From DAOVGU01 sp030637775 [NCBI: bacterium] (GTDB taxonomy: Bacteria; Ratteibacteria; UBA8468): DNA of 10,587 nt. The stretch spans positions 1-10,587 of the forward strand of contig DAOWFY010000176.1 in the NCBI GenBank assembly GCA_030637775.1, written 5' to 3'. Position numbers and translations under genes: made by a program. This document shows, piece after piece, positions 1,632-7,850 of the stretch (position 1 is its first letter; each line of letters begins with the position of its first letter). The notes beneath the pieces are model-generated. The model worked only from the letters and a program-made list of their open reading frames with translations. It searched no databases and was not told where the DNA came from.

Positions 1632-2237
1632 TTATAATTTAATTGTAGTGCGAGGCTTTAGCCTCGCTAATTTATAAAATGATAGTGTTGACCTTCCGTA
1701 TTGCTTCTGCTTAGTTAAGTAAAAAGGCTCGATTGCTTCGGGAATATCTTTCCCCCTCCGATGTTCCAAAATAAGCACACCCTTATCTGAAAGAAGTCGA
1801 TACCTCCTGACCATTTCCAAAATTCCTTTTAATTTTTCTAAAAGTATTGAATATGGTGGATCAAGAAAGATGAACTTAAATTTTTTACCATTTTTAGATA
1901 GGATTGTCAACACCTTCTCTACGGGAAGGCAATAAACTTCAGTCCTTTCCCTCACTCCCAATTCATTTAGATTTCTCTCAATTACCGCCACGCATCTTTT
2001 TTCCTTCTCCGCAAAAACAACCTCTTTTGCTCCTCTACTTAAAGCCTCCAATCCTACTGTGCCCAAACCCGCATAAAGGTCTAAAAAATTTCCTTTTTTA
2101 AGGTCACCCAAAATATCAAAGAGCGCCTCTCTCACTCTATTCTTGGTAGGCTGAACCTTCAGACCCCTGCCTATCTTTAATCTCTTTCCCCTCCAGACTC
2201 CCCCAATAATCCTTAATTTCTTTTCATTAAATATCAT
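1632..2237 (-). CDS. rsmD: 16S rRNA (guanine966-N2)-methyltransferase RsmD
   Basis: RsmD is a Rossmann-fold S-adenosylmethionine-dependent enzyme that methylates G966 of 16S rRNA on the assembling small subunit. Visible features in order: LRIIGGVWRGKRLK (residues 9-21), TKNRVREALFDIL (31-43), SAM motif I FLDLYAGLGTVGLEALSRGA (51-70), and the catalytic DPPY at residues 126-129. At 201 residues it is somewhat longer than the usual 180-190. The extra carboxyl residues ARLKPRTTIKL follow the normal end (RSTLSFYKL). They are encoded by a perfect 18-bp palindrome, so they look like a captured repeat rather than part of the enzyme. No strong Shine-Dalgarno is visible. The start is chosen because LRIIGG normally lies within the first 10 residues. 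First gene of the rsmD-coaD-rpmF-plsX run. Confidence 0.94.
   Translation of the reverse strand: MIFNEKKLRIIGGVWRGKRLKIGRGLKVQPTKNRVREALFDILGDLKKGNFLDLYAGLGTVGLEALSRGAKEVVFAEKEKRCVAVIERNLNELGVRERTEVYCLPVEKVLTILSKNGKKFKFIFLDPPYSILLEKLKGILEMVRRYRLLSDKGVLILEHRRGKDIPEAIEPFYLTKQKQYGRSTLSFYKLARLKPRTTIKL
1650..1667. repeat. Perfect palindrome in the rsmD 3' end
   Basis: GCGAGGC, loop TTTA, GCCTCGC: a 7-bp perfect stem, G+C-rich in AT-rich surroundings. It encodes residues 191-196 of RsmD (ARLKPR) and sits just before the stop codon. There is no T-run after it on either strand, so it does not look like an intrinsic terminator. It resembles short REP-like dispersed palindromes. Whether it recurs in this genome cannot be seen here. 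Confidence 0.7.
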
Positions 2238-2311
2238 CCGAAATTTCGTCTAAATAGTTTTATTAGCTACTTGTCCGCCATCTTCTTTCTGAACCTCATT
2301 AATAATTCTTT

Positions 2312-2605
2312 CTACGGATGAGGGATAATTGAAATTATAGTAATCTGTTTCCTCTCCGGACCATAGTACCAAAAAATACGGTAAGCAGCAGAAGTTAAGC
2401 TTTCAGCATATACTTCAAAAACTTTTTCACCATTTGGCCCTTGCAAAGAACTGTATTCATGAGTATGAAGGCCGGGATGGCGAGGATTCCTCGCTAAGAG
2501 TTTAATAGATTTGACAACAGCTTTGTATCGTTTTTCTAATCCCTTATTTCTTTTTAAAACCTCAAGCTGTTCTTTTACAAGATTTGTTTGAATAATTTTA
2601 AACAC
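2312..2605 (-). CDS. RelE/ParE-family toxin (probable)
   Basis: The 97-residue basic protein has the compact layout of the RelE/ParE superfamily. An amino-terminal helical part (LVKEQLEVLKRNKGLEKRYKAVVKSIKLLARNPRHPGLHTH) is followed by a beta-rich end with AYRIFWYYGPERKQITIISIIPHP, corresponding to the family's YRI(I/F)(F/Y) strand and the closing histidine-containing strand. RelE members cleave ribosome-bound mRNA and ParE members poison gyrase; the sequence does not say which. It begins with GTG. Its weak AGGAT site overlaps the stop codon of the upstream antitoxin gene 8 bases away, so the toxin should be made at a lower rate than its partner. Family call is from residue pattern only. Confidence 0.75.
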   Translation of the reverse strand: MFKIIQTNLVKEQLEVLKRNKGLEKRYKAVVKSIKLLARNPRHPGLHTHEYSSLQGPNGEKVFEVYAESLTSAAYRIFWYYGPERKQITIISIIPHP

Positions 2606-2613
2606 GTAAAATC

Positions 2614-2898
2614 CTATAATTTTTTCAAGTCAAGTTTTGAGGTTTTCTTTTCTTTGGCTTGTTTCAATCCTTTTCTTACAGAGGACAATGCTCCCTTGTT
2701 TTGGTAAAGCCAGATCTCTGAAGCGGGGATTTCAACTATTGGTCGCAAGAGAATTTCTCCGGATCTGTTTTGATATATACGAACGCGCTTGTAGTGTCCT
2801 GCAAGATATTTCCCGAGCACAATGCGTTCTCGCCCATCAATAGTTTTAGTAGCAATCTCACGAAAATTGTCCGTGATATGCACAATTTCTTGTCTCAT
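2614..2898 (-). CDS. AbrB-like antitoxin partnering the RelE-like toxin
   Basis: This 94-residue protein lies directly upstream of the toxin gene. Its first half (IDGRERIVLGKYLAGHYKRV, then IYQNRSGEILLRPIVEIPAS) has the short beta-strand pattern of a swapped-hairpin AbrB-type DNA-binding domain. The second half (EIWLYQNKGALSSVRKGLKQAKEKKTSKLDL) looks like the extended helix plus acidic/hydrophobic tail that antitoxins wrap around a RelE-type toxin. The order antitoxin then toxin, with an 8-base gap, is standard for type II modules. It has its own promoter and a near-perfect ribosome binding site (AGGAGGTGA, 6 bases before the ATG). By analogy, the protein and its complex probably repress that promoter. 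The exact family is not certain. Confidence 0.7.
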   Translation of the reverse strand: MRQEIVHITDNFREIATKTIDGRERIVLGKYLAGHYKRVRIYQNRSGEILLRPIVEIPASEIWLYQNKGALSSVRKGLKQAKEKKTSKLDLKKL

Positions 2899-2904
2899 CT
2901 AAAA

Positions 2905-2948
2905 TCACCTCCTACTTTTAGGTTACCAGAAATCCCAGAATGTGTCAA
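2905..2948 (-). promoter_or_regulatory. Promoter and strong RBS of the antitoxin-toxin pair
   Basis: On the minus strand TTGACA (complement of 2943-2948) is followed after 17 bases by TAACCT (complement of 2920-2925), a perfect -35 with a weak -10. AGGAGGTGA (complement of 2905-2913) follows and is spaced 6 bases from the antitoxin ATG. The promoter lies in the 89-bp gap after secF, so the pair need not depend on read-through from hisI-secDF. Confidence 0.6.
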
Positions 2949-2987
2949 GTGGGAATTGGGGAAAACACCCATTGGCTTATCTAGCCC

Positions 2988-3878
2988 CTAAACGCGGAAG
3001 CGATGAGGACTTTTCTTTTCCCATTCTATAACTAAAGCACTGGCGATAAAGATCGAGGAATAGGTTCCGGTAATCACGCCTACTAAAAGAGCAAAGGCAA
3101 AGTTATGAATGACATCTCCTCCCAAGAAGAAAAGAGAAAGGAGTACCAAAATTGTAGTAAAAGAGGTAATCAGGGTCCGACCTAAAACCTGATTGATGCT
3201 TTCATTGAATAATTCCACGTGATTGGTCTTTTTGGTTTTCCTTAAATTTTCCCGGATGCGGTCAAAAATTACAATGGTATCATTGATGGAGTAACCGGCA
3301 AGCGCCAAAAGAGCAGCAATAATCTTGCCATCAATCTGTTTGCCAAAAAGAGCCAAGAACCCAATGGTTATTAGGATATCATGAAAAATGGCAATTACCC
3401 CACAGGCGGCAAATCTGAATTCAAAACGGAAAGCAACATAACAAAGAATACCAATTATTCCATAAAAAAAGGCCAAAAGTCCTTTCCTTCGAAGAGTCTT
3501 ACCCATTGTTGGGCTAATCATCTCATCGGCTACAATCTCAAAACGATTATTATCCAATCCCTTCCTGAACTGGGCTAAAATCCCCGAGGTACTTGAGGTA
3601 GTTTTTAAGACGATTTCACGCTTGGTCTTTCCAATTTCTTGGATGGGAATTTGGCTCAAACCCATATTTTTCAGGGAATTTCTAATTTCATTTAAGGAGA
3701 TTGGCTTTTCAAACCTTAATTGCAGGAGTCTCCCTCCGGTAAAATCGATGGCAAAGTTGCTCCTGCCTCGCTCGATAAAGACAAAAAGACCCAAAACAAT
3801 AAATAATGCAGAAAGAAAAAAGAAAAACCTTCTCTTCCCAAAAAAATCTATTCTCGTTTCCTTTTTTATCAGTTTCAT
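2988..3878 (-). CDS. secF: Protein translocase accessory subunit SecF
   Basis: SecF pairs with SecD in the inner membrane and uses the proton gradient to help pull secreted proteins through SecYEG. The 296-residue protein has a first membrane segment (about residues 20-34), the periplasmic entry motif FAIDFTGGRLLQL (about 42-54), and a periplasmic region. Five more membrane segments follow, containing the family signature GYSINDTIVIFDRIRENLRKT. It ends with a short basic tail. The length fits SecF (about 290-320). Its ATG overlaps the secD stop by one base (TAATG), typical of coupled secD-secF. No clear terminator is visible in the 89 bp that separate it from the antitoxin gene. Confidence 0.96.
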   Translation of the reverse strand: MKLIKKETRIDFFGKRRFFFFLSALFIVLGLFVFIERGRSNFAIDFTGGRLLQLRFEKPISLNEIRNSLKNMGLSQIPIQEIGKTKREIVLKTTSSTSGILAQFRKGLDNNRFEIVADEMISPTMGKTLRRKGLLAFFYGIIGILCYVAFRFEFRFAACGVIAIFHDILITIGFLALFGKQIDGKIIAALLALAGYSINDTIVIFDRIRENLRKTKKTNHVELFNESINQVLGRTLITSFTTILVLLSLFFLGGDVIHNFAFALLVGVITGTYSSIFIASALVIEWEKKSPHRFRV

Positions 3879-5194
3879 TAAATGCTCAACCTCTCCACTC
3901 GATATTGACTGCAGATAAAATCAAAGATAAGTTTAGTAACAAAGACCGCCGTGAAAATATTGGCTAAGATCCCGACTGTAAGGGTCAGTCCAAAGCCCTT
4001 AATAGAACCGGTGCCAAAGAGAAAGAGAACAAAACCGGCAATGACCGTAGTAAGATTTGAATCCACAATGGTCACCAATGCCCTTTCATAACCGGCATCA
4101 ATGCTGGAGCGAATTGCCTTTCTTATTTTTAGTTCCTCCCGGATCCGTTCAAAGATAAGGACATTGGCGTCGACTGCCAAGCCAATCGTTAAAGCGATAC
4201 CTGCGATACCAGGAAGCGTCAGGGTTGCTTTGAAAAAGGCGAGGATGGCTAAAATAATAAGAATATTGAGGAAAAGGGCAAAATTGGCAATCATCCCGGA
4301 AGCCGCATAGTAAATCACCATAAAGAGCACCACCAGAATTGCTCCCAAAATGGCCGAAGTTGCTCCTTTCTTGATAGAATCACGCCCCAAACTGGGACCA
4401 ACAATCCTTTTCTGGATAATGGATAGTTCTGCCGGGAGTGCCCCTGCGCGGAGAATTATTGCTAAGTCCTTTGCCTCCTCCATCGTGAACCGACCGCTAA
4501 TCTGAGCCTTGCCGCTGGGAATACGGTCCCTGATTACCGGGGCAGAGAAAACCTTACCGTCAAGAACAATCGCAAGCCTCTTTTCAATATTGTCGCTGGT
4601 AATCTTGGCAAACTTCCTTGCTCCTTCTCGATTAAATTCCAACCTGACCTCAGGAAGACCGTTATCGTCGATACCAACATAGGCATCCTTCAAACCAGAA
4701 CCGGTAAGTTCCGCTTGTCTCTTTAAAAGTAATGGAGGACCCTGCCGCGGGATTCCTCGCTCATCCTTTTTAACAAGATAAGCGATTTCATACTCTTCTG
4801 GAATATCCCCGGAAAGTGCTTTGTCCAAAAGTTCGGCATCATCATTAACCAACTTGAATTCCAAGAGGGCAGTCTTGCCAATAATCTCAATTGCCCTTTC
4901 TGGGTCCTTTATTCCCGGGAGTTGAACCAAAATACAATCCTCCCCTGCCTTCTGTATCACCGGCTCCGTTACCCCTAAAGCATCAATCCGATTGCGAATA
5001 ACCTCTAAGGCTCGCTCGGTAGCATCTCGCGCAGTTTCCTCTTTTAGACCACTCTTCTCTACCTGCAGCATCAGCTGCATTCCTCCCAAAAGGTCAAGTC
5101 CCCGCCTGATCTTCTTTGCCGGCGGATATACCTGCCAGGCACAGAGCCCGATAATTGCTAATACGAATAAAAGTTTATATTTTATTGTCTTCAT
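3878..5194 (-). CDS. secD: Protein translocase accessory subunit SecD
   Basis: SecD forms the large periplasmic part of the SecDF complex. The 438-residue protein opens with a membrane segment (about residues 7-22) followed at once by RRGLDLLGGMQLMLQVE, the classic SecD motif. The P1 region includes EVIRNRIDALGVTEPVIQ and ILVQLPGI. A second periplasmic part (GIDDNGLPEVRLEFN, and IVLDGKVFSAPVIRDRIPSG) precedes five further membrane helices with AVDANVLIFERIREEL, the signature of the proton pathway in this RND-type family. Length is in the compact SecD range of many non-proteobacteria. The gene starts 3 bases after the hisI stop and overlaps secF by one base. yajC, a frequent neighbour, is absent here. 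Confidence 0.96.
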   Translation of the reverse strand: MKTIKYKLLFVLAIIGLCAWQVYPPAKKIRRGLDLLGGMQLMLQVEKSGLKEETARDATERALEVIRNRIDALGVTEPVIQKAGEDCILVQLPGIKDPERAIEIIGKTALLEFKLVNDDAELLDKALSGDIPEEYEIAYLVKKDERGIPRQGPPLLLKRQAELTGSGLKDAYVGIDDNGLPEVRLEFNREGARKFAKITSDNIEKRLAIVLDGKVFSAPVIRDRIPSGKAQISGRFTMEEAKDLAIILRAGALPAELSIIQKRIVGPSLGRDSIKKGATSAILGAILVVLFMVIYYAASGMIANFALFLNILIILAILAFFKATLTLPGIAGIALTIGLAVDANVLIFERIREELKIRKAIRSSIDAGYERALVTIVDSNLTTVIAGFVLFLFGTGSIKGFGLTLTVGILANIFTAVFVTKLIFDFICSQYRVERLSI

Positions 5195-5197
5195 AAT

Positions 5198-5587
5198 CTA
5201 ATAGACTTCCTTCGGCGCAAAAACCTTTTTCTCAATTACTTTAAATCTTCCGGAAGAGGGTTCGAACTTTCGATAGAAGCAACTCCGGTATCCCTTATGG
5301 CAGGCTCCCTTTAATTGCTTTACCTTAAGAAGAAGAGTATCATTATCACAATCAAGGAGAATCTCCTCTAATAATTGAAAGTGACCCGAGACCTCCCCCT
5401 TTAACCAGACTCTTTTTCTTGACCTGCTAAAAAAATGAACCTTTTTAGTCTCCAAGGTTTTCCGAAAAGATTTCTCGTTCATATAGCCAAGCATCAAGAC
5501 TTCATTATTCTCTACATCCTGAATGATTGCCGGAATAAGTCCATCTTTGTTAAATTTTAACTCTTTAACAATGTCTTGCGTCTTCAT
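5198..5587 (-). CDS. hisI: Phosphoribosyl-AMP cyclohydrolase HisI
   Basis: HisI opens the adenine ring of phosphoribosyl-AMP, the third step of histidine biosynthesis. The 129-residue protein has LKFNKDGLIPAIIQDVENNE, the block EVLMLGYMNEKSF, SRSRKRVWLKGEVSGHFQ and the metal sites: DCDND for magnesium and the three cysteines of GACHKGYRSCFY plus DC for zinc. No HisE domain follows, so it is the monofunctional form. The reading frame extends 27 codons upstream to 5668, but that part lies over the promoter and an ogt fragment and matches nothing in the family. MKTQDIVKELKF is the natural amino end. The gene heads a hisI-secD-secF run. Confidence 0.93.
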   Translation of the reverse strand: MKTQDIVKELKFNKDGLIPAIIQDVENNEVLMLGYMNEKSFRKTLETKKVHFFSRSRKRVWLKGEVSGHFQLLEEILLDCDNDTLLLKVKQLKGACHKGYRSCFYRKFEPSSGRFKVIEKKVFAPKEVY

Positions 5588-5596
5588 TCTTAAGTA

Positions 5597-5631
5597 GTTA
5601 TAATAAGATAAATATGGTTTTCTGTCAAAAA
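5597..5631. repeat. 35-bp direct repeat, left copy
   Basis: Positions 5597-5631 are identical to 7247-7281 (same orientation, 35 of 35 bases, offset 1650). The identity stops abruptly at both ends. The repeat contains a full minus-strand promoter and abuts the hisI start. The two copies bracket an island holding the MazF module, a pseudogene and the MNT-HEPN gene. Confidence 0.95.
5600..5628 (-). promoter_or_regulatory. Promoter of hisI-secD-secF
   Basis: Minus strand: TTGACA (complement of 5623-5628), 17 bases, TATTAT (complement of 5600-5605). The -35 is perfect and the -10 has five of six consensus bases. Transcription should begin near 5593, only about 6 bases before the hisI ATG at 5587, leaving no room for a Shine-Dalgarno. 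The hisI message from this promoter would be nearly leaderless. Confidence 0.75.
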
Positions 5632-5633
5632 TT

Positions 5634-5662
5634 ACCCCTTCCCTTTTACCATCCCCTGCCAT
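5634..5662 (+). pseudogene. Fragment of the ogt active-site region
   Basis: These 29 bases match 7633-7661 of the intact ogt gene at 27 positions (differences at 5644 and 5648). In frame on the plus strand they read YPFPFTIPCH against NPFPFAIPCH around the catalytic cysteine. Nothing of the gene is left on either side. Together with the adjoining 35-bp repeat this is a relic of a duplicated hisI-ogt boundary with most of the middle lost. Confidence 0.75.
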
Positions 5663-5674
5663 ACCCACACACCC

Positions 5675-5703
5675 TTGACACCCTCCTCACGATGTGATAG
5701 ACT
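5675..5703 (+). promoter_or_regulatory. Promoter of the antitoxin-MazF pair
   Basis: TTGACA at 5675-5680, 17 bases, then TAGACT at 5698-5703 (four of six consensus bases). The ribosome binding site GGAGGT follows at 5711-5716. This promoter diverges from the hisI promoter, with about 45 bp between the two -35 boxes. Confidence 0.6.
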
Positions 5704-5721
5704 TGATAATGGAGGTGCAAA

Positions 5722-5934
5722 ATAGCTAAGATTATCCATGCTATATTTGAAAATGGTGTTTTCCGCCCGGTAGACAAAATCAGCCTTCCTGAACATCAAG
5801 AAGTTGAAATTATTATCCAAGAAGATATTCCAACCAGGCTTATAGCTGTTGTGGCGGAGAGAACAGGAGGGTTTGATTTCCTCGCTGATCCGAGAGAAGA
5901 TATATACACTATCGCCGATGGAGAACCCATTTAA
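5722..5934 (+). CDS. DUF104-like antitoxin of the MazF pair, ATA in place of a start codon
   Basis: The plus frame reads (M)AKIIHAIFENGVFRPVD, then KISLPEHQEVEIIIQED, and ends DPREDIYTIADGEPI (70 residues). The opening (I.AIFENGV.RP....LPE...VEI) is the pattern of DUF104/AF2212-like antitoxins, and the tail looks like a toxin-binding segment. It would neutralise the downstream MazF-type toxin and probably repress the operon. A perfect GGAGGT lies 5 bases before position 5722, exactly where ATG is expected, but the codon there is ATA. No in-frame ATG, GTG or TTG exists upstream before a stop, or downstream until codon 44. Either ATA is used inefficiently, or the antitoxin has lost its start. 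The stop lies 17 bases inside the toxin gene. Confidence 0.7.
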   Translation: MAKIIHAIFENGVFRPVDKISLPEHQEVEIIIQEDIPTRLIAVVAERTGGFDFLADPREDIYTIADGEPI

Positions 5935-6280
5935 AATTATACTAAAACGTGGCGATATTGTCTTAGTGCCTTTCCCATTCACTGACCTGTCAAAGGAAAA
6001 AGTTAGACCCGCTGTTGTTATTTCTTCCAAAAATGATGTTGATGTCAGCGTTGCTTTCATCTCTGCCATTATTCCCGAAGAGCCCACCGAGGTTGATTTT
6101 GTGTTATCAGAATCCCATCCTGATTTTTCAATGACAGGCTTGAAGAAATCATCTGTATTCAAAATGAATAAGGTTCTTACACTTGAACGATCAAAAATTT
6201 TACGCCGACTTGGTAGAATTTCTCCATCTATTCAAAAAGAACTTGACCCTAGATTTAAACTTGCCTTTGGTATAGAATAA
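5918..6280 (+). CDS. MazF/PemK-family toxin (probable mRNA interferase)
   Basis: The 120-residue product starts MENPFKIILKRGDIVLVPFPFTDLS, followed by KVRPAVVISS. This is the hallmark of the MazF/PemK fold: the GDIV strand, then the RPAVVI block containing the conserved arginine of the RNase active site. Members cut mRNA at short single-stranded motifs; the target here cannot be read from sequence. The ATG at 5918 lies within the antitoxin's last codons (17-bp overlap), and the frame's upstream extension to 5849 is antitoxin sequence read out of frame. No separate ribosome binding site is obvious, so translation is probably coupled to the antitoxin. The length fits the family. The reading frame is intact although its antitoxin lacks a normal start codon. 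Confidence 0.85.
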   Translation: MENPFKIILKRGDIVLVPFPFTDLSKEKVRPAVVISSKNDVDVSVAFISAIIPEEPTEVDFVLSESHPDFSMTGLKKSSVFKMNKVLTLERSKILRRLGRISPSIQKELDPRFKLAFGIE

Positions 6281-6441
6281 ACTCTCCTTACAATTTCCGA
6301 ATGGTGATGTAGCCTCTATCGGTGCTGGTTATGCTTCAGAATGGGATTTTGGTATTAGTTTGGGGGGAGGATGGGCTTGCCGCCCTAAAAATTTGTCTTG
6401 CCGTGAAAGAATCTATTCGTAAAGAAAGACTTATCCAATAA
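6276..6441 (+). pseudogene. Remnant of a Gfo/Idh/MocA-type dehydrogenase
   Basis: Two short pieces in different frames look like parts of one gene. From 6276 one frame reads NKLSLQFPNGDVASIGAGY, resembling the strand block F.NG...S.... of the C-terminal domain of Gfo/Idh/MocA NAD(P)-dependent sugar dehydrogenases. From about 6337 the next frame reads LQNGILVLVWGEDGLAAL, then KICLAVKESIRKERLIQ and a stop at 6439. This matches the usual end of that family (NG..P.V.GEDG..AL.I.LA..ES...). In an intact enzyme more than 100 residues separate these blocks; here about 20 codons do. The piece starts immediately at the mazF stop, suggesting the toxin module landed in or replaced the rest of the gene. 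The identification rests on motif memory, not alignment. Confidence 0.55.
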
Positions 6442-6451
6442 TTCCATTTTG

Positions 6452-7180
6452 TTATTTGCTCTCTAAAATTCCTTCGGCAAAATTTAACAATTTTTTCACC
6501 CTATCAATTACAAATTTTGCATCTTCAGGGTTCAATTTAGCCTTTGGTTTATATCGTGCACTTGCTCGAAGATCAAGGCATAAATGAAGGTCGTGTCCAA
6601 ACTGCGAGGGAAGTTTTCCGGTTAAAACAAAAAGCTTACCAAATTGGGCTACTACTCCTCCATGTGAAGAGGCTAAAGGTTCTTTTGTACTAATGATCAA
6701 TGCCTTTACCAAAAGCTCGATAGCATTATATCCTGAATCAATCGCTAAGCGAGTTTTCTCCTGCCTCAAAGCATCCTCAGCATAACCTAAGAATTCCTTA
6801 GCCAGCTCTAGATAATCTTTAAAATTCAATTCCCATTCTGTGCCGGTTAATTTCGTAAAGATAGGACGGCCAAAATTAAGGACTTCCCAAAGGAAAGGTG
6901 AATGTCCTAAGGATTGCTCAAAATCCTCTTTTGACATAGGTACGATTTCGATCACTTGGTTTTCTTCACAGGCAAGGTTAAAGCTTATCTTACTCGCTAC
7001 TTCTAAAAGGCCCCATTCATTTATGTCGGAATAGATTACCAAGAGGTCAATGTCACTTTCAGGAGTATCCTTTTCCTTTGCAACACTTCCGAATAGATAA
7101 ATTCCTAAGATTTTCTCGCCGAGGCGATCTTTTAGTTGTGAAGTAAAACGTTCTATTACTCTTTCTTTCTCTTTTTCCAT
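6452..7180 (-). CDS. Fused MNT nucleotidyltransferase-HEPN domain protein
   Basis: The 242-residue protein joins two domains usually encoded by separate genes. Residues 1-110 are a minimal nucleotidyltransferase: LFGSVAKEKDTPESDIDLLV carries the GS (31-32) and the D-x-D pair (43 and 45) that bind metal and nucleotide. Residues 118-240 are a helical HEPN domain (AIDSGYNAIELLVKALI, then DLRASARYKPKAKLNPEDA and a final helix). In MNT-HEPN toxin-antitoxin modules the HEPN part is an RNase toxin and the MNT part adds nucleotides to it to silence it. Here the R-x4-6-H RNase motif is not visible: RASARYKP has no histidine. So a regulatory or housekeeping nucleotidyltransferase role is equally possible. 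The ATG at 7180 has no Shine-Dalgarno. The promoter in the right 35-bp repeat lies about 70 bases upstream. Confidence 0.8.
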   Translation of the reverse strand: MEKEKERVIERFTSQLKDRLGEKILGIYLFGSVAKEKDTPESDIDLLVIYSDINEWGLLEVASKISFNLACEENQVIEIVPMSKEDFEQSLGHSPFLWEVLNFGRPIFTKLTGTEWELNFKDYLELAKEFLGYAEDALRQEKTRLAIDSGYNAIELLVKALIISTKEPLASSHGGVVAQFGKLFVLTGKLPSQFGHDLHLCLDLRASARYKPKAKLNPEDAKFVIDRVKKLLNFAEGILESK

Positions 7181-7246
7181 TGATTATAATTTACTATATC
7201 TCAGATGAAAAATCAAACCGAAAGTTATTTTTAAAGAACTCAATGG

Positions 7247-7281
7247 GTTATAATAAGATAAATATGGTTTTCTGTCAAAAA
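7247..7281. repeat. 35-bp direct repeat, right copy
   Basis: Identical to 5597-5631. This copy lies 66 bp upstream of the MNT-HEPN ATG and immediately left of the hairpin array. Sequence outside the 35 bp is unrelated on the island side. To its right, the left copy continues into the ogt fragment while this copy continues into the full ogt upstream region. Confidence 0.95.
7250..7278 (-). promoter_or_regulatory. Promoter of the MNT-HEPN gene
   Basis: Minus strand: TTGACA (complement of 7273-7278), 17 bases, TATTAT (complement of 7250-7255), the same boxes as the hisI promoter because both sit in the 35-bp repeat. Transcription would start near 7243, giving a 5' untranslated region of about 60 bases without a visible Shine-Dalgarno. 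Confidence 0.65.
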
Positions 7282-7285
7282 GACC

Positions 7286-7342
7286 TTACCCCATTTAGAA
7301 ATATCAGAGATAGAAGACATCTGCCGGAATTTCTAACGGGGT
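7286..7342. repeat. Hairpin unit H0 upstream of ogt
   Basis: Nested inverted repeats: ACCCC (7288-7292) with GGGGT (7338-7342), TTAGAAAT (7295-7302) with ATTTCTAA (7329-7336), and CAGA (7305-7308) with TCTG (7320-7323). The unit is bracketed by the direct repeat TTACCCCATTT at 7286-7296 and 7343-7353. There is no T-run, so a terminator is unlikely. Confidence 0.75.
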
Positions 7343-7506
7343 TTACCCCATTTGCTGTGAGCAATTTCAGAGAAGCTAATTCTCTCCGCATATTGCTACT
7401 GAAGTAAGCTGATAATAAAATGTCGCAAGTTGCTGTGAGAAATATCAAGGAAGATTATCTACTCGCATATTGCTACTGAAGATAGCATATAGTATAGTGT
7501 CGCAAT
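7343..7506. repeat. Tandem ~77-bp repeat with hairpin units H1 and H2
   Basis: Copy 1 (about 7352-7429) and copy 2 (about 7430-7506) share TTGCTGTGAG at the start, GCATATTGCTACTGAAG in the middle and TGTCGCAA at the end. H1 folds as AGCAAT (7360-7365) with ATTGCT (7392-7397) and AGAGAA (7369-7374) with TTCTCT (7380-7385). H2 keeps the right arm ATTGCT (7469-7474) but has left arm AGAAAT (7438-7443), so one pair is lost. Copy 2 runs into the first codons of ogt. With H0 this array fills the stretch between the MNT-HEPN gene and ogt. Confidence 0.8.
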
Positions 7507-7757
7507 TTCAAAAAGCGGTCTATAAAGCGGTAAACCGGATCCCCTTTGGTCAAACAAGGTCTTACCAATGGGTGGCAAGAAAAACAGGAAGACCCAAAGC
7601 GGTTCGGGCAATTGGAGAGGCTCTAAAGAAAAACCCCTTCCCCTTTGCCATCCCCTGCCATCGGGTAATCAGAAAGGATAAAACCTTGGGTGGGTACATC
7701 CTGGGCAAGGAACTAAAGAAGAAACTCCTGAATTGGGAGAAAAATATTCTTAGTTAG
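7497..7757 (+). CDS. ogt: Ogt/MGMT-type methylated-DNA-protein-cysteine methyltransferase, single catalytic domain
   Basis: The protein repairs O6-alkylguanine by moving the alkyl group to its own cysteine. With a GTG start it has 86 residues. FQKAVYKAVNRIPFGQTRSY is the start of the catalytic domain, RAIGEALKKNP carries the DNA-intruding arginine finger region, and IPCHRVI holds the acceptor cysteine (residue 54). The usual amino-terminal domain is absent, so this is a minimal form. Alkyltransferase-like proteins are equally short but replace the cysteine, which is intact here. An in-frame TTG at 7470 would add nine residues, but these are tandem-repeat sequence. The GTG aligns with an ATG in repeat copy 1 (7420), both followed by TCGCAA. 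No good Shine-Dalgarno is seen for either start. Confidence 0.85.
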   Translation: MSQFQKAVYKAVNRIPFGQTRSYQWVARKTGRPKAVRAIGEALKKNPFPFAIPCHRVIRKDKTLGGYILGKELKKKLLNWEKNILS

Positions 7758-7792
7758 AATCCATCCCTTTAATAAAATTTTCTCAACCGCAC

Positions 7793-7820
7793 TTGACAAA
7801 AAAATATTTTGGGGTATAAT
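7793..7820 (+). promoter_or_regulatory. Consensus promoter of the regulator-pseudopilin-CBM9 run
   Basis: TTGACA (7793-7798), 16 bases, TATAAT (7815-7820): both boxes are perfect, with a spacer one base below optimum. Transcription should start near 7827, leaving about 24 bases to the preferred ATG at 7851. So strong a promoter in front of a repressor-type gene suggests it is held down by its own product, but no clear palindromic operator was found. Confidence 0.8.
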
Positions 7821-7850
7821 ATAATTAAAGAGTCGATGGAGCGAGGGAAT

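What the first reader, a model, noticed from the sequence alone, without database searches (positions are those of the whole stretch)
5597..7281. A 35-bp perfect direct repeat with a built-in promoter brackets an accessory island
Positions 5597-5631 and 7247-7281 are identical over 35 bases. Each copy holds TTGACA-N17-TATTAT reading leftward, and each stands in front of a gene on that strand (hisI and MNT-HEPN). Between them lie a MazF module, a decayed dehydrogenase and the MNT-HEPN gene, none related to the flanking housekeeping genes. The simplest reading is that an ancestral hisI-[35 bp]-ogt region was split by an insertion that duplicated its edge. This gives the incoming MNT-HEPN gene a copy of the hisI promoter. 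A mobile promoter-bearing repeat is the alternative.
Basis: partly seen in the sequence, partly recalled or inferred. Interest (0 to 1): 0.62.

Follow-up and report, generated by a model that had tools for sequence, protein, structure and literature searches.

The report
Duplicated hisI-ogt promoter flanking acquired genes
The repeated 35 bases are the native shared start region of two housekeeping genes, copied once when a DNA-repair gene was partly duplicated around newly acquired genes, which may have handed one newcomer a ready-made promoter; it is an ordinary kind of genome rearrangement.

Summary
In detail: 35 identical bases at 5597-5631 and 7247-7281, and no third copy in the held genome. 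The 35-mer is neither a mobile element nor a plain target-site duplication. It is the native head-to-head promoter between hisI and ogt and ends inside ogt (ATG, MVFCQK). Sister genomes G001 and G002 have one copy each, hisI and ogt adjacent, no island. In 21 of 29 fetched relatives' hisI loci ogt stands head-to-head with hisI. The left copy is followed by a collapsed ogt remnant (5634-5662, 97% to sister ogt). The right copy starts the other ogt, whose body (7503-7757) is cut from its ATG by a 221-bp insert holding two units of a family-specific dispersed repeat. So at least the first two thirds of ogt was duplicated; MazEF, a dehydrogenase remnant and MNT-HEPN lie between. The copied TTGACA-N17-TATTAT points into MNT-HEPN, about 63 nt before its ATG: plausible promoter capture, unproven. 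The dehydrogenase remnant parted from its closest homologue too long ago to have been copied with ogt. Ordinary rearrangement with a neat promoter; modest interest.

The parts
5198..5587 (-). hisI (phosphoribosyl-AMP cyclohydrolase)
   Evidence: Pfam PRA-CH E=7.2e-34 on the longer ORF; match in 46 of 61 genomes searched, window genome included
5597..5631 (.). Left 35-mer: native hisI/ogt divergent promoter and ogt start. hisI -35 5628-5623 and -10 5605-5600 on the - strand; rightward -10 TATAAT 5599-5604; ogt ATG 5614-5616
   Evidence: identity with G001 extends to 42 bp on the hisI side
5634..5662 (+). ogt remnant: middle of ogt joined to the ogt start after a deletion of about 136 bp; truncated at the PCH codons
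   Evidence: 29 bp, 96.6% to G001 ogt; 93% to the window's own ogt at 7633-7661
5722..5934 (+). AF2212-like antitoxin gene without a usual start codon (GGAGGTG, then ATA)
   Evidence: (AF2212-like, E=1.7e-11 on 5731-5931)
5921..6280 (+). MazF/PemK toxin gene
   Evidence: PemK_toxin E=2e-11; other matches in 35 class genomes at most 35% identical
6300..6441 (+). Broken 3' end of a Gfo/Idh/MocA-type dehydrogenase gene (gfo')
   Evidence: C-terminal piece 69% to the Gfo of contig C142, other fetched Gfo loci 26-50%
6452..7180 (-). Fused MNT-HEPN protein (nucleotidyltransferase plus HEPN)
   Evidence: Pfam HEPN E=1.6e-12, NTP_transf_2 E=2.1e-8
7247..7281 (.). Right 35-mer: copy of the hisI/ogt promoter and ogt start (ATG 7264-7266); leftward promoter 7278-7250 faces MNT-HEPN
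   Evidence: DNA to its left shows no likeness to the hisI side (local score reached in 773 of 1000 shuffles)
7282..7502 (.). Insert that replaces 6 bp of ogt and separates its ATG from its body: a palindromic stretch (7288-7342) and two units of a dispersed repeat
7350..7508 (+). Two head-to-tail units (7350-7431, 7432-7508) of the dispersed repeat; its last bases, CAATTT, are shared with native ogt
   Evidence: (model R1)
7503..7757 (+). ogt body (O6-methylguanine-DNA methyltransferase), possibly read from GTG 7491
   Evidence: TIGR00589 E=1.8e-30, DNA_binding_1 E=1.2e-31; 92.6% DNA identity to G001; dN/dS about 0.15

Best explanation
The 35-mer is the conserved core of an ancestral compact divergent promoter: hisI is read leftward from TTGACA-N17-TATTAT, ogt rightward from an overlapping TATAAT, and the ogt start codon lies inside the hisI promoter spacer. 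In this lineage the promoter plus at least the first two thirds of ogt was duplicated locally, most simply as a tandem duplication. Foreign genes (mazEF, a dehydrogenase end, MNT-HEPN) now lie between the copies. The hisI-side ogt collapsed to a remnant. The other ogt kept its body but was cut from its start codon by repeat insertions. One consequence is that the copied hisI promoter points into MNT-HEPN and may drive it. Shown: the arrangement in relatives, absence of the island from their hisI-ogt locus, ogt remnant, insert, promoter match. Inferred: tandem duplication as the route, promoter activity, and use of the promoter by MNT-HEPN.
For: Sister genomes: hisI and ogt head-to-head with one copy of the 35-mer, no island. 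Wider adjacency: 21 of 29 fetched relatives' hisI loci. The left copy matches G001 over 42 bp on the hisI side and then a 29-bp ogt middle fragment at 97%; the right copy is followed, after the insert, by 258 bp of ogt at 92.6%. Promoter: 11 of 12 in G000, G001 and G002, with 0 of 200 shuffles as good in G001 and G002; 9 of 21 loci, these two included, have an exact TTGACA at 17-18 bp inside the ogt start. MNT-HEPN and MazF have no close relative in G001-G003. Bidirectional promoters usually have start sites 18 bp apart (PMC10268837, passages); here the predicted sites, about 5593 and 5611, are 18 bp apart (my arithmetic).
Against: No genome with an intermediate state (two whole ogt copies) was found; only one other genome of the genus is held. 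The duplication's right edge is not visible. The order of duplication and island arrival is unknown. The left ogt fragment is short (29 bp). No sign of selection on the right 35-mer beyond its identity: with about 7% divergence (2 of 29 in the ogt fragment) roughly 2.4 differences would be expected by drift and 0 are seen, which is not significant (my arithmetic). No Shine-Dalgarno is apparent by eye before MNT-HEPN. 12 of 21 loci show no such hisI promoter. The rightward ogt promoter has a good -10 but no convincing -35 (by eye).
Confidence: 0.68

Rival explanations
1. Plain insertion with a 35-bp target-site duplication.
For: One copy in relatives, two around the island.
Against: The left copy carries ogt middle sequence besides the 35-mer (5634-5662), which a 35-bp target duplication cannot supply. 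No integrase or transposase ORF was recognised in the island (ORF list, by eye; Pfam only on the ORFs).
Confidence: 0.08
2. Additive recombination: incoming DNA from a relative already carried its own hisI/ogt promoter and ogt, and was joined next to the resident ogt, so the two ogt copies come from different strains.
For: The 35-mer is conserved between genera (34 of 35 in G002), so a related donor would carry it. Left and right ogt pieces each differ from G001 at one position of the 29 bp, different ones.
Against: Body ogt divergence (dS 0.25 to G001) resembles that of the resident hisI and secD (0.36, 0.38). mazF and MNT-HEPN have no close relative in the genomes searched.
Confidence: 0.17
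3. Mis-assembly: the contig joins two loci or strains at the 35-mer.
For: Fragmented MAG (177 contigs). Recombining at the 35-mer would give a simple hisI-ogt arrangement. No reads could be checked.
Against: The matched sister records carry k141 in their titles (MEGAHIT-style naming, from recall); if this MAG was assembled likewise, a 35-bp repeat is far below the overlap needed. Both flanks of both copies differ, and each side has its own sequence changes.
Confidence: 0.05
4. Mobile promoter-bearing repeat.
For: The repeat contains a near-consensus promoter.
Against: Only 2 copies in the genome and 1 in the sister, the sister's at hisI/ogt. An exact scan of genome contigs gave 2 stretches, both on the G001 and G002 hisI-ogt contigs (that tool may leave out the window's own genome).
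Confidence: 0.02

Closest known systems
Promoter capture by tandem duplication (PMC11111574: abstract, outline and passages seen; it cites Anderson and Roth 1978 for histidine genes, not seen)
   Same: A duplication joins a native promoter to a neighbouring acquired gene; no long homology is needed at the join.
   Different: Natural, partly decayed, one event; no expression data; the promoter is one half of a divergent pair and brought the start of ogt with it.
Bidirectional promoters with a shared -10 element (PMC10268837 and PMC12825309, passages; Warman et al. 2021 seen only as cited there)
   Same: Pseudo-symmetrical TTATAATAA, overlapping -10 boxes on both strands, predicted start sites 18 bp apart.
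   Different: Inferred from sequence only; the hisI -35 box lies inside the first ogt codons.
REPIN/MITE-type dispersed repeats (likeness from recall; PMC8049555 and PMC2759123 seen only in the search listings)
   Same: Units of about 80 bp, about 50 matches per genome in three family genomes, single, in tandem or as halves, one pair inserted into ogt.
   Different: No transposase link was looked for; no conserved fold predicted; found only in this family among the class genomes searched.

Membership tests
Promoter capture by tandem duplication | The promoter occurs once in relatives and twice here, once before its native gene and once before an acquired gene | tested here: met
Promoter capture by tandem duplication | The duplicated segment extends beyond the promoter (a unit, not a short target duplication) | tested here: met
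   ogt remnant 5634-5662
Promoter capture by tandem duplication | Both edges of a tandem unit visible | tested here: inconclusive
   left edge at 7247 is clear; right edge lost or overwritten
Promoter capture by tandem duplication | The acquired gene is transcribed from the copied promoter | not testable with these tools
   needs transcript 5' ends
Insertion with target-site duplication | The duplicated sequence is exactly the target and nothing more | tested here: not met
   left copy includes further ogt sequence
Mobile promoter / dispersed repeat | Copies at several unrelated loci | tested here: not met
   2 copies in G000, 1 in G001
Bidirectional promoter with shared -10 | Overlapping -10 elements on opposite strands at a divergent gene pair | tested here: met
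   TATAAT 5599-5604 (+, by eye) and TATTAT 5605-5600 (-)
Bidirectional promoter with shared -10 | Two mapped divergent start sites 7-25 bp apart | not testable with these tools
   predicted 18 bp apart; definition seen in PMC10268837

The most novel reading that the evidence does not exclude
A local duplication of the hisI/ogt bidirectional promoter was kept because it put a horizontally acquired MNT-HEPN (toxin-antitoxin-like) gene under a steady amino-acid-biosynthesis promoter, while ogt on the same copy was silenced by dispersed-repeat insertions: one event recruiting a promoter for a selfish or defence gene at the cost of a DNA-repair gene.
Probability: 0.2. Interest if true: 0.5.

Novelty: new member of a known kind. 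Interest (0 to 1): 0.3.

Why it matters
It is a readable natural example of how an acquired toxin-antitoxin-like gene can come to lie behind a host promoter through local duplication, with the ancestral arrangement still present in sister genomes. It also shows that a perfect short direct repeat round an island need not be a target-site duplication: here it is best read as what purifying selection on a promoter plus start codon leaves of a longer, decayed duplication. Finally it documents a divergent hisI/ogt pair found in 21 of 29 fetched relatives' hisI loci of uncultivated bacteria.

Tried and rejected
Target-site duplication: rejected because ogt sequence beyond the 35 bp is present on the left. 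Mobile promoter repeat: rejected, two copies only.

Large tandem duplication of [promoter-ogt-sugar cluster-gfo] with the left unit collapsed: attractive because gfo' at 6300-6441 is closest to the Gfo that ends a cluster on contig C142 (69% over 35 residues; the other fetched Gfo loci 26-50%, the 50% over 16 residues only; the loci compared are the 30 fetched from the longer match list). Rejected because synonymous sites are saturated (pS 0.80 over 17.5 sites, pN 0.09, against pS 0.30 for secD between G000 and G001), so the two gfo genes parted under selection long before G000 and G001 did. The sample is only 75 bp.

hisI sequence left of the right 35-mer: none detectable (773 of 1000 shuffles as good). 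A source for MNT-HEPN: nothing close in the 60 other genomes, in plasmids (1 record, 28% identity) or viral contigs (5 pattern matches, none confirmed). A conserved RNA fold of the dispersed repeat: none predicted. Rfam on the window: no match at the gathering threshold. Structure prediction was not used: it does not bear on the question.

Limits of the absence claims: the DNA searches scored at most 40 candidates per genome, and one search missed the 75% match of gfo' to C142 that pairwise BLAST showed, so DNA relatives below about 75-80% could have been missed; the genomes are 77-93% complete.

Full report
Observation. The two 35-base stretches are exactly as described and the held genome contains no further copy at up to 3 mismatches (G000, 1.40 Mb, 177 contigs, 83.5% complete; the window is the whole of contig C6). 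The leftward promoter TTGACA-17-TATTAT scores 11 of 12 in each copy.

What the 35-mer is. In G001, the only other genome of the genus held, the sequence occurs once, between hisI and a divergent ogt gene. G002, another genus of the family, has the same arrangement with 34 of 35 bases. G003, the third relative of the family, gave no hisI match. The last 18 bases, ATGGTTTTCTGTCAAAAA, are the start of ogt (MVFCQK). So the 35-mer is the core of a divergent promoter plus the ogt start. In the left copy the rightward -10 TATAAT (5599-5604, by eye) overlaps the leftward -10 TATTAT (5605-5600). Predicted start sites (+7 from each -10, my arithmetic) are 18 bp apart, the usual spacing reported for bacterial bidirectional promoters (PMC10268837, passages; PMC12825309, passages).

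How old the arrangement is. Of 29 relatives' hisI loci fetched (L004-L032), 21 have ogt head-to-head with hisI, with 31-165 bp between the extrapolated hisI start and the position matching the first residue of the query ogt. Of the 8 without, 2 (L013, L015) have hisI at a contig edge and 2 (L011, L030) come from genomes outside the class. Of the 21, 9 (G001 and G002 among them) have an exact TTGACA overlapping the first ogt codons with a -10 at 17-18 bp and are reached by at most 5% of 200 shuffles; the other 12 do not. The hisI promoter inside the ogt start is thus old in parts of the class, not in all of it.

What happened here. The left copy agrees with G001 over 42 bp on the hisI side and is then followed by 29 bp of the middle of ogt (96.6% to G001), about 136 bp of ogt between them being gone; then the island begins. 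The right copy agrees over the 35 bp only. Its left flank shows no likeness to the hisI side (773 of 1000 shuffles as good). To its right, 6 bp of ogt are replaced by 221 bp (7282-7502), followed by 258 bp of ogt and its end at 92.6% identity to G001. Both copies therefore carry ogt sequence from two separate parts of the gene, so the duplicated stretch covered at least the promoter to codon about 61 of ogt. A 35-bp target-site duplication does not explain this. The perfect identity of 35 bp is not a clock: the same 35 bp is identical in G001, although secD and hisI differ from G001 by dS 0.38 and 0.36 and ogt by 0.25.

The island. It holds an AF2212-like antitoxin gene with ATA where a start would be expected, a MazF/PemK gene, the broken end of a Gfo/Idh/MocA-type gene and a fused MNT-HEPN gene. 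At the hisI-ogt locus of G001 and G002 it is absent. Elsewhere in G001-G003 its DNA was not found apart from the 35-mer, the ogt piece, the dispersed repeat and one 35-bp match at 86% (at most 40 candidates per genome scored). Protein matches to MNT-HEPN in the 61 genomes are distant (20 of 61 genomes have a match, window genome included; 24-48% identity over parts, the window's own gene aside). Those of MazF in 35 class genomes are at most 35%, four of them paralogues in G000 itself. PADLOC gives candidate-system models for the nucleotidyltransferase part of MNT-HEPN (best PDC-S09, E=2.9e-16); of the NCBIfam matches listed for it none reaches its curated cut-off.

A second lineage-specific insertion lies on the other side of ogt. 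In G001 and G002 ogt is followed by a convergent beta-barrel-type gene (naming mine, no family search). In G000 that gene is on contig C142, where its 3' end faces a Gfo gene that ends a set of genes which look sugar-related by eye, while the window continues from ogt into a GntR/LacI-type regulator, a pilin-like and a CBM9 protein. In G001-G003 this DNA matched only at ogt, in pilin-like N-terminal segments (67-82%) and over short stretches (candidates capped at 40 per genome). The bases TTAGAATCC stand at both broken ends (window 7754-7762, C142 4028-4036), compatible with a 9-bp duplication at one insertion, but the two contigs are not joined in the assembly.

Could the remnant gfo' show that the whole cluster was duplicated with ogt? 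It is closest to the C142 Gfo (69% over 35 residues; other fetched Gfo loci 26-50%), but the 75 aligned bases have pS 0.80 and pN 0.09: both genes evolved as functional proteins for far longer than the split of G000 and G001. So gfo' most likely came separately.

Consequences. (i) MNT-HEPN has the copied hisI promoter upstream with a predicted leader of about 63 nt. This is promoter capture in form; PMC11111574 (abstract, outline and passages) describes tandem duplication activating transferred genes. No expression evidence exists here. (ii) ogt is cut from its ATG, and the DNA upstream of the right 35-mer is no longer that of the native locus; its body has dN/dS about 0.15 to G001 (12 synonymous, 7 non-synonymous changes) and may be read from GTG 7491, so either the break is recent or the gene still works.

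The insert in ogt. 7350-7508 holds two units of a repeat of about 80 bp. A sequence model from 25 copies finds 58 matches in G000, 48 in G001, 50 in G003, 1 in G002 and none in the other 31 class genomes searched (at most 132 candidates per genome were scored, so these may be lower bounds). Matches to one half only (model positions 36-82 or 2-43) also occur. No conserved RNA fold was predicted.

Verdict. It is a new member of a known kind.

Noticed in passing
window 7350-7431 and 7432-7508; 58 matches in G000: Dispersed repeat of about 80 bp (AGTTGCTGTGAG...CTCGCATATTGCTACT...AGTAGCGCAATTT) in G000, G001 and G003, one match in G002 and none in 31 other class genomes searched; whole units, tandem pairs and half units occur, several flanked by inverted sequence as if inside longer palindromes (by eye).
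   Followed up: partly
window 2214-2991: Stretch absent between rsmD and secF (gene names by eye) in G002, carrying two small ORFs (2312-2605, 2614-2898) that look by eye like a toxin-antitoxin pair, but no Pfam or NCBIfam match.
   Followed up: partly
window 5711-5724: The antitoxin gene has GGAGGTG followed by ATA instead of ATG, GTG or TTG; the antitoxin may be start-less although mazF is open.
   Followed up: no
window 7789-7831: A near-perfect promoter sequence (TTGACA...TATAAT, 12 of 12) before the GntR-type regulator recurs at 83-93% identity once more in each of the four family genomes searched (G000 C147, G001 C48, G002 C66, G003 C22).
   Followed up: no
window 7754-7762 and L071 (G000 C142) 4028-4036: TTAGAATCC at both broken ends of the ogt/beta-barrel intergenic region suggests a second, sugar-related insertion next to ogt with a possible 9-bp duplication.
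   Followed up: partly
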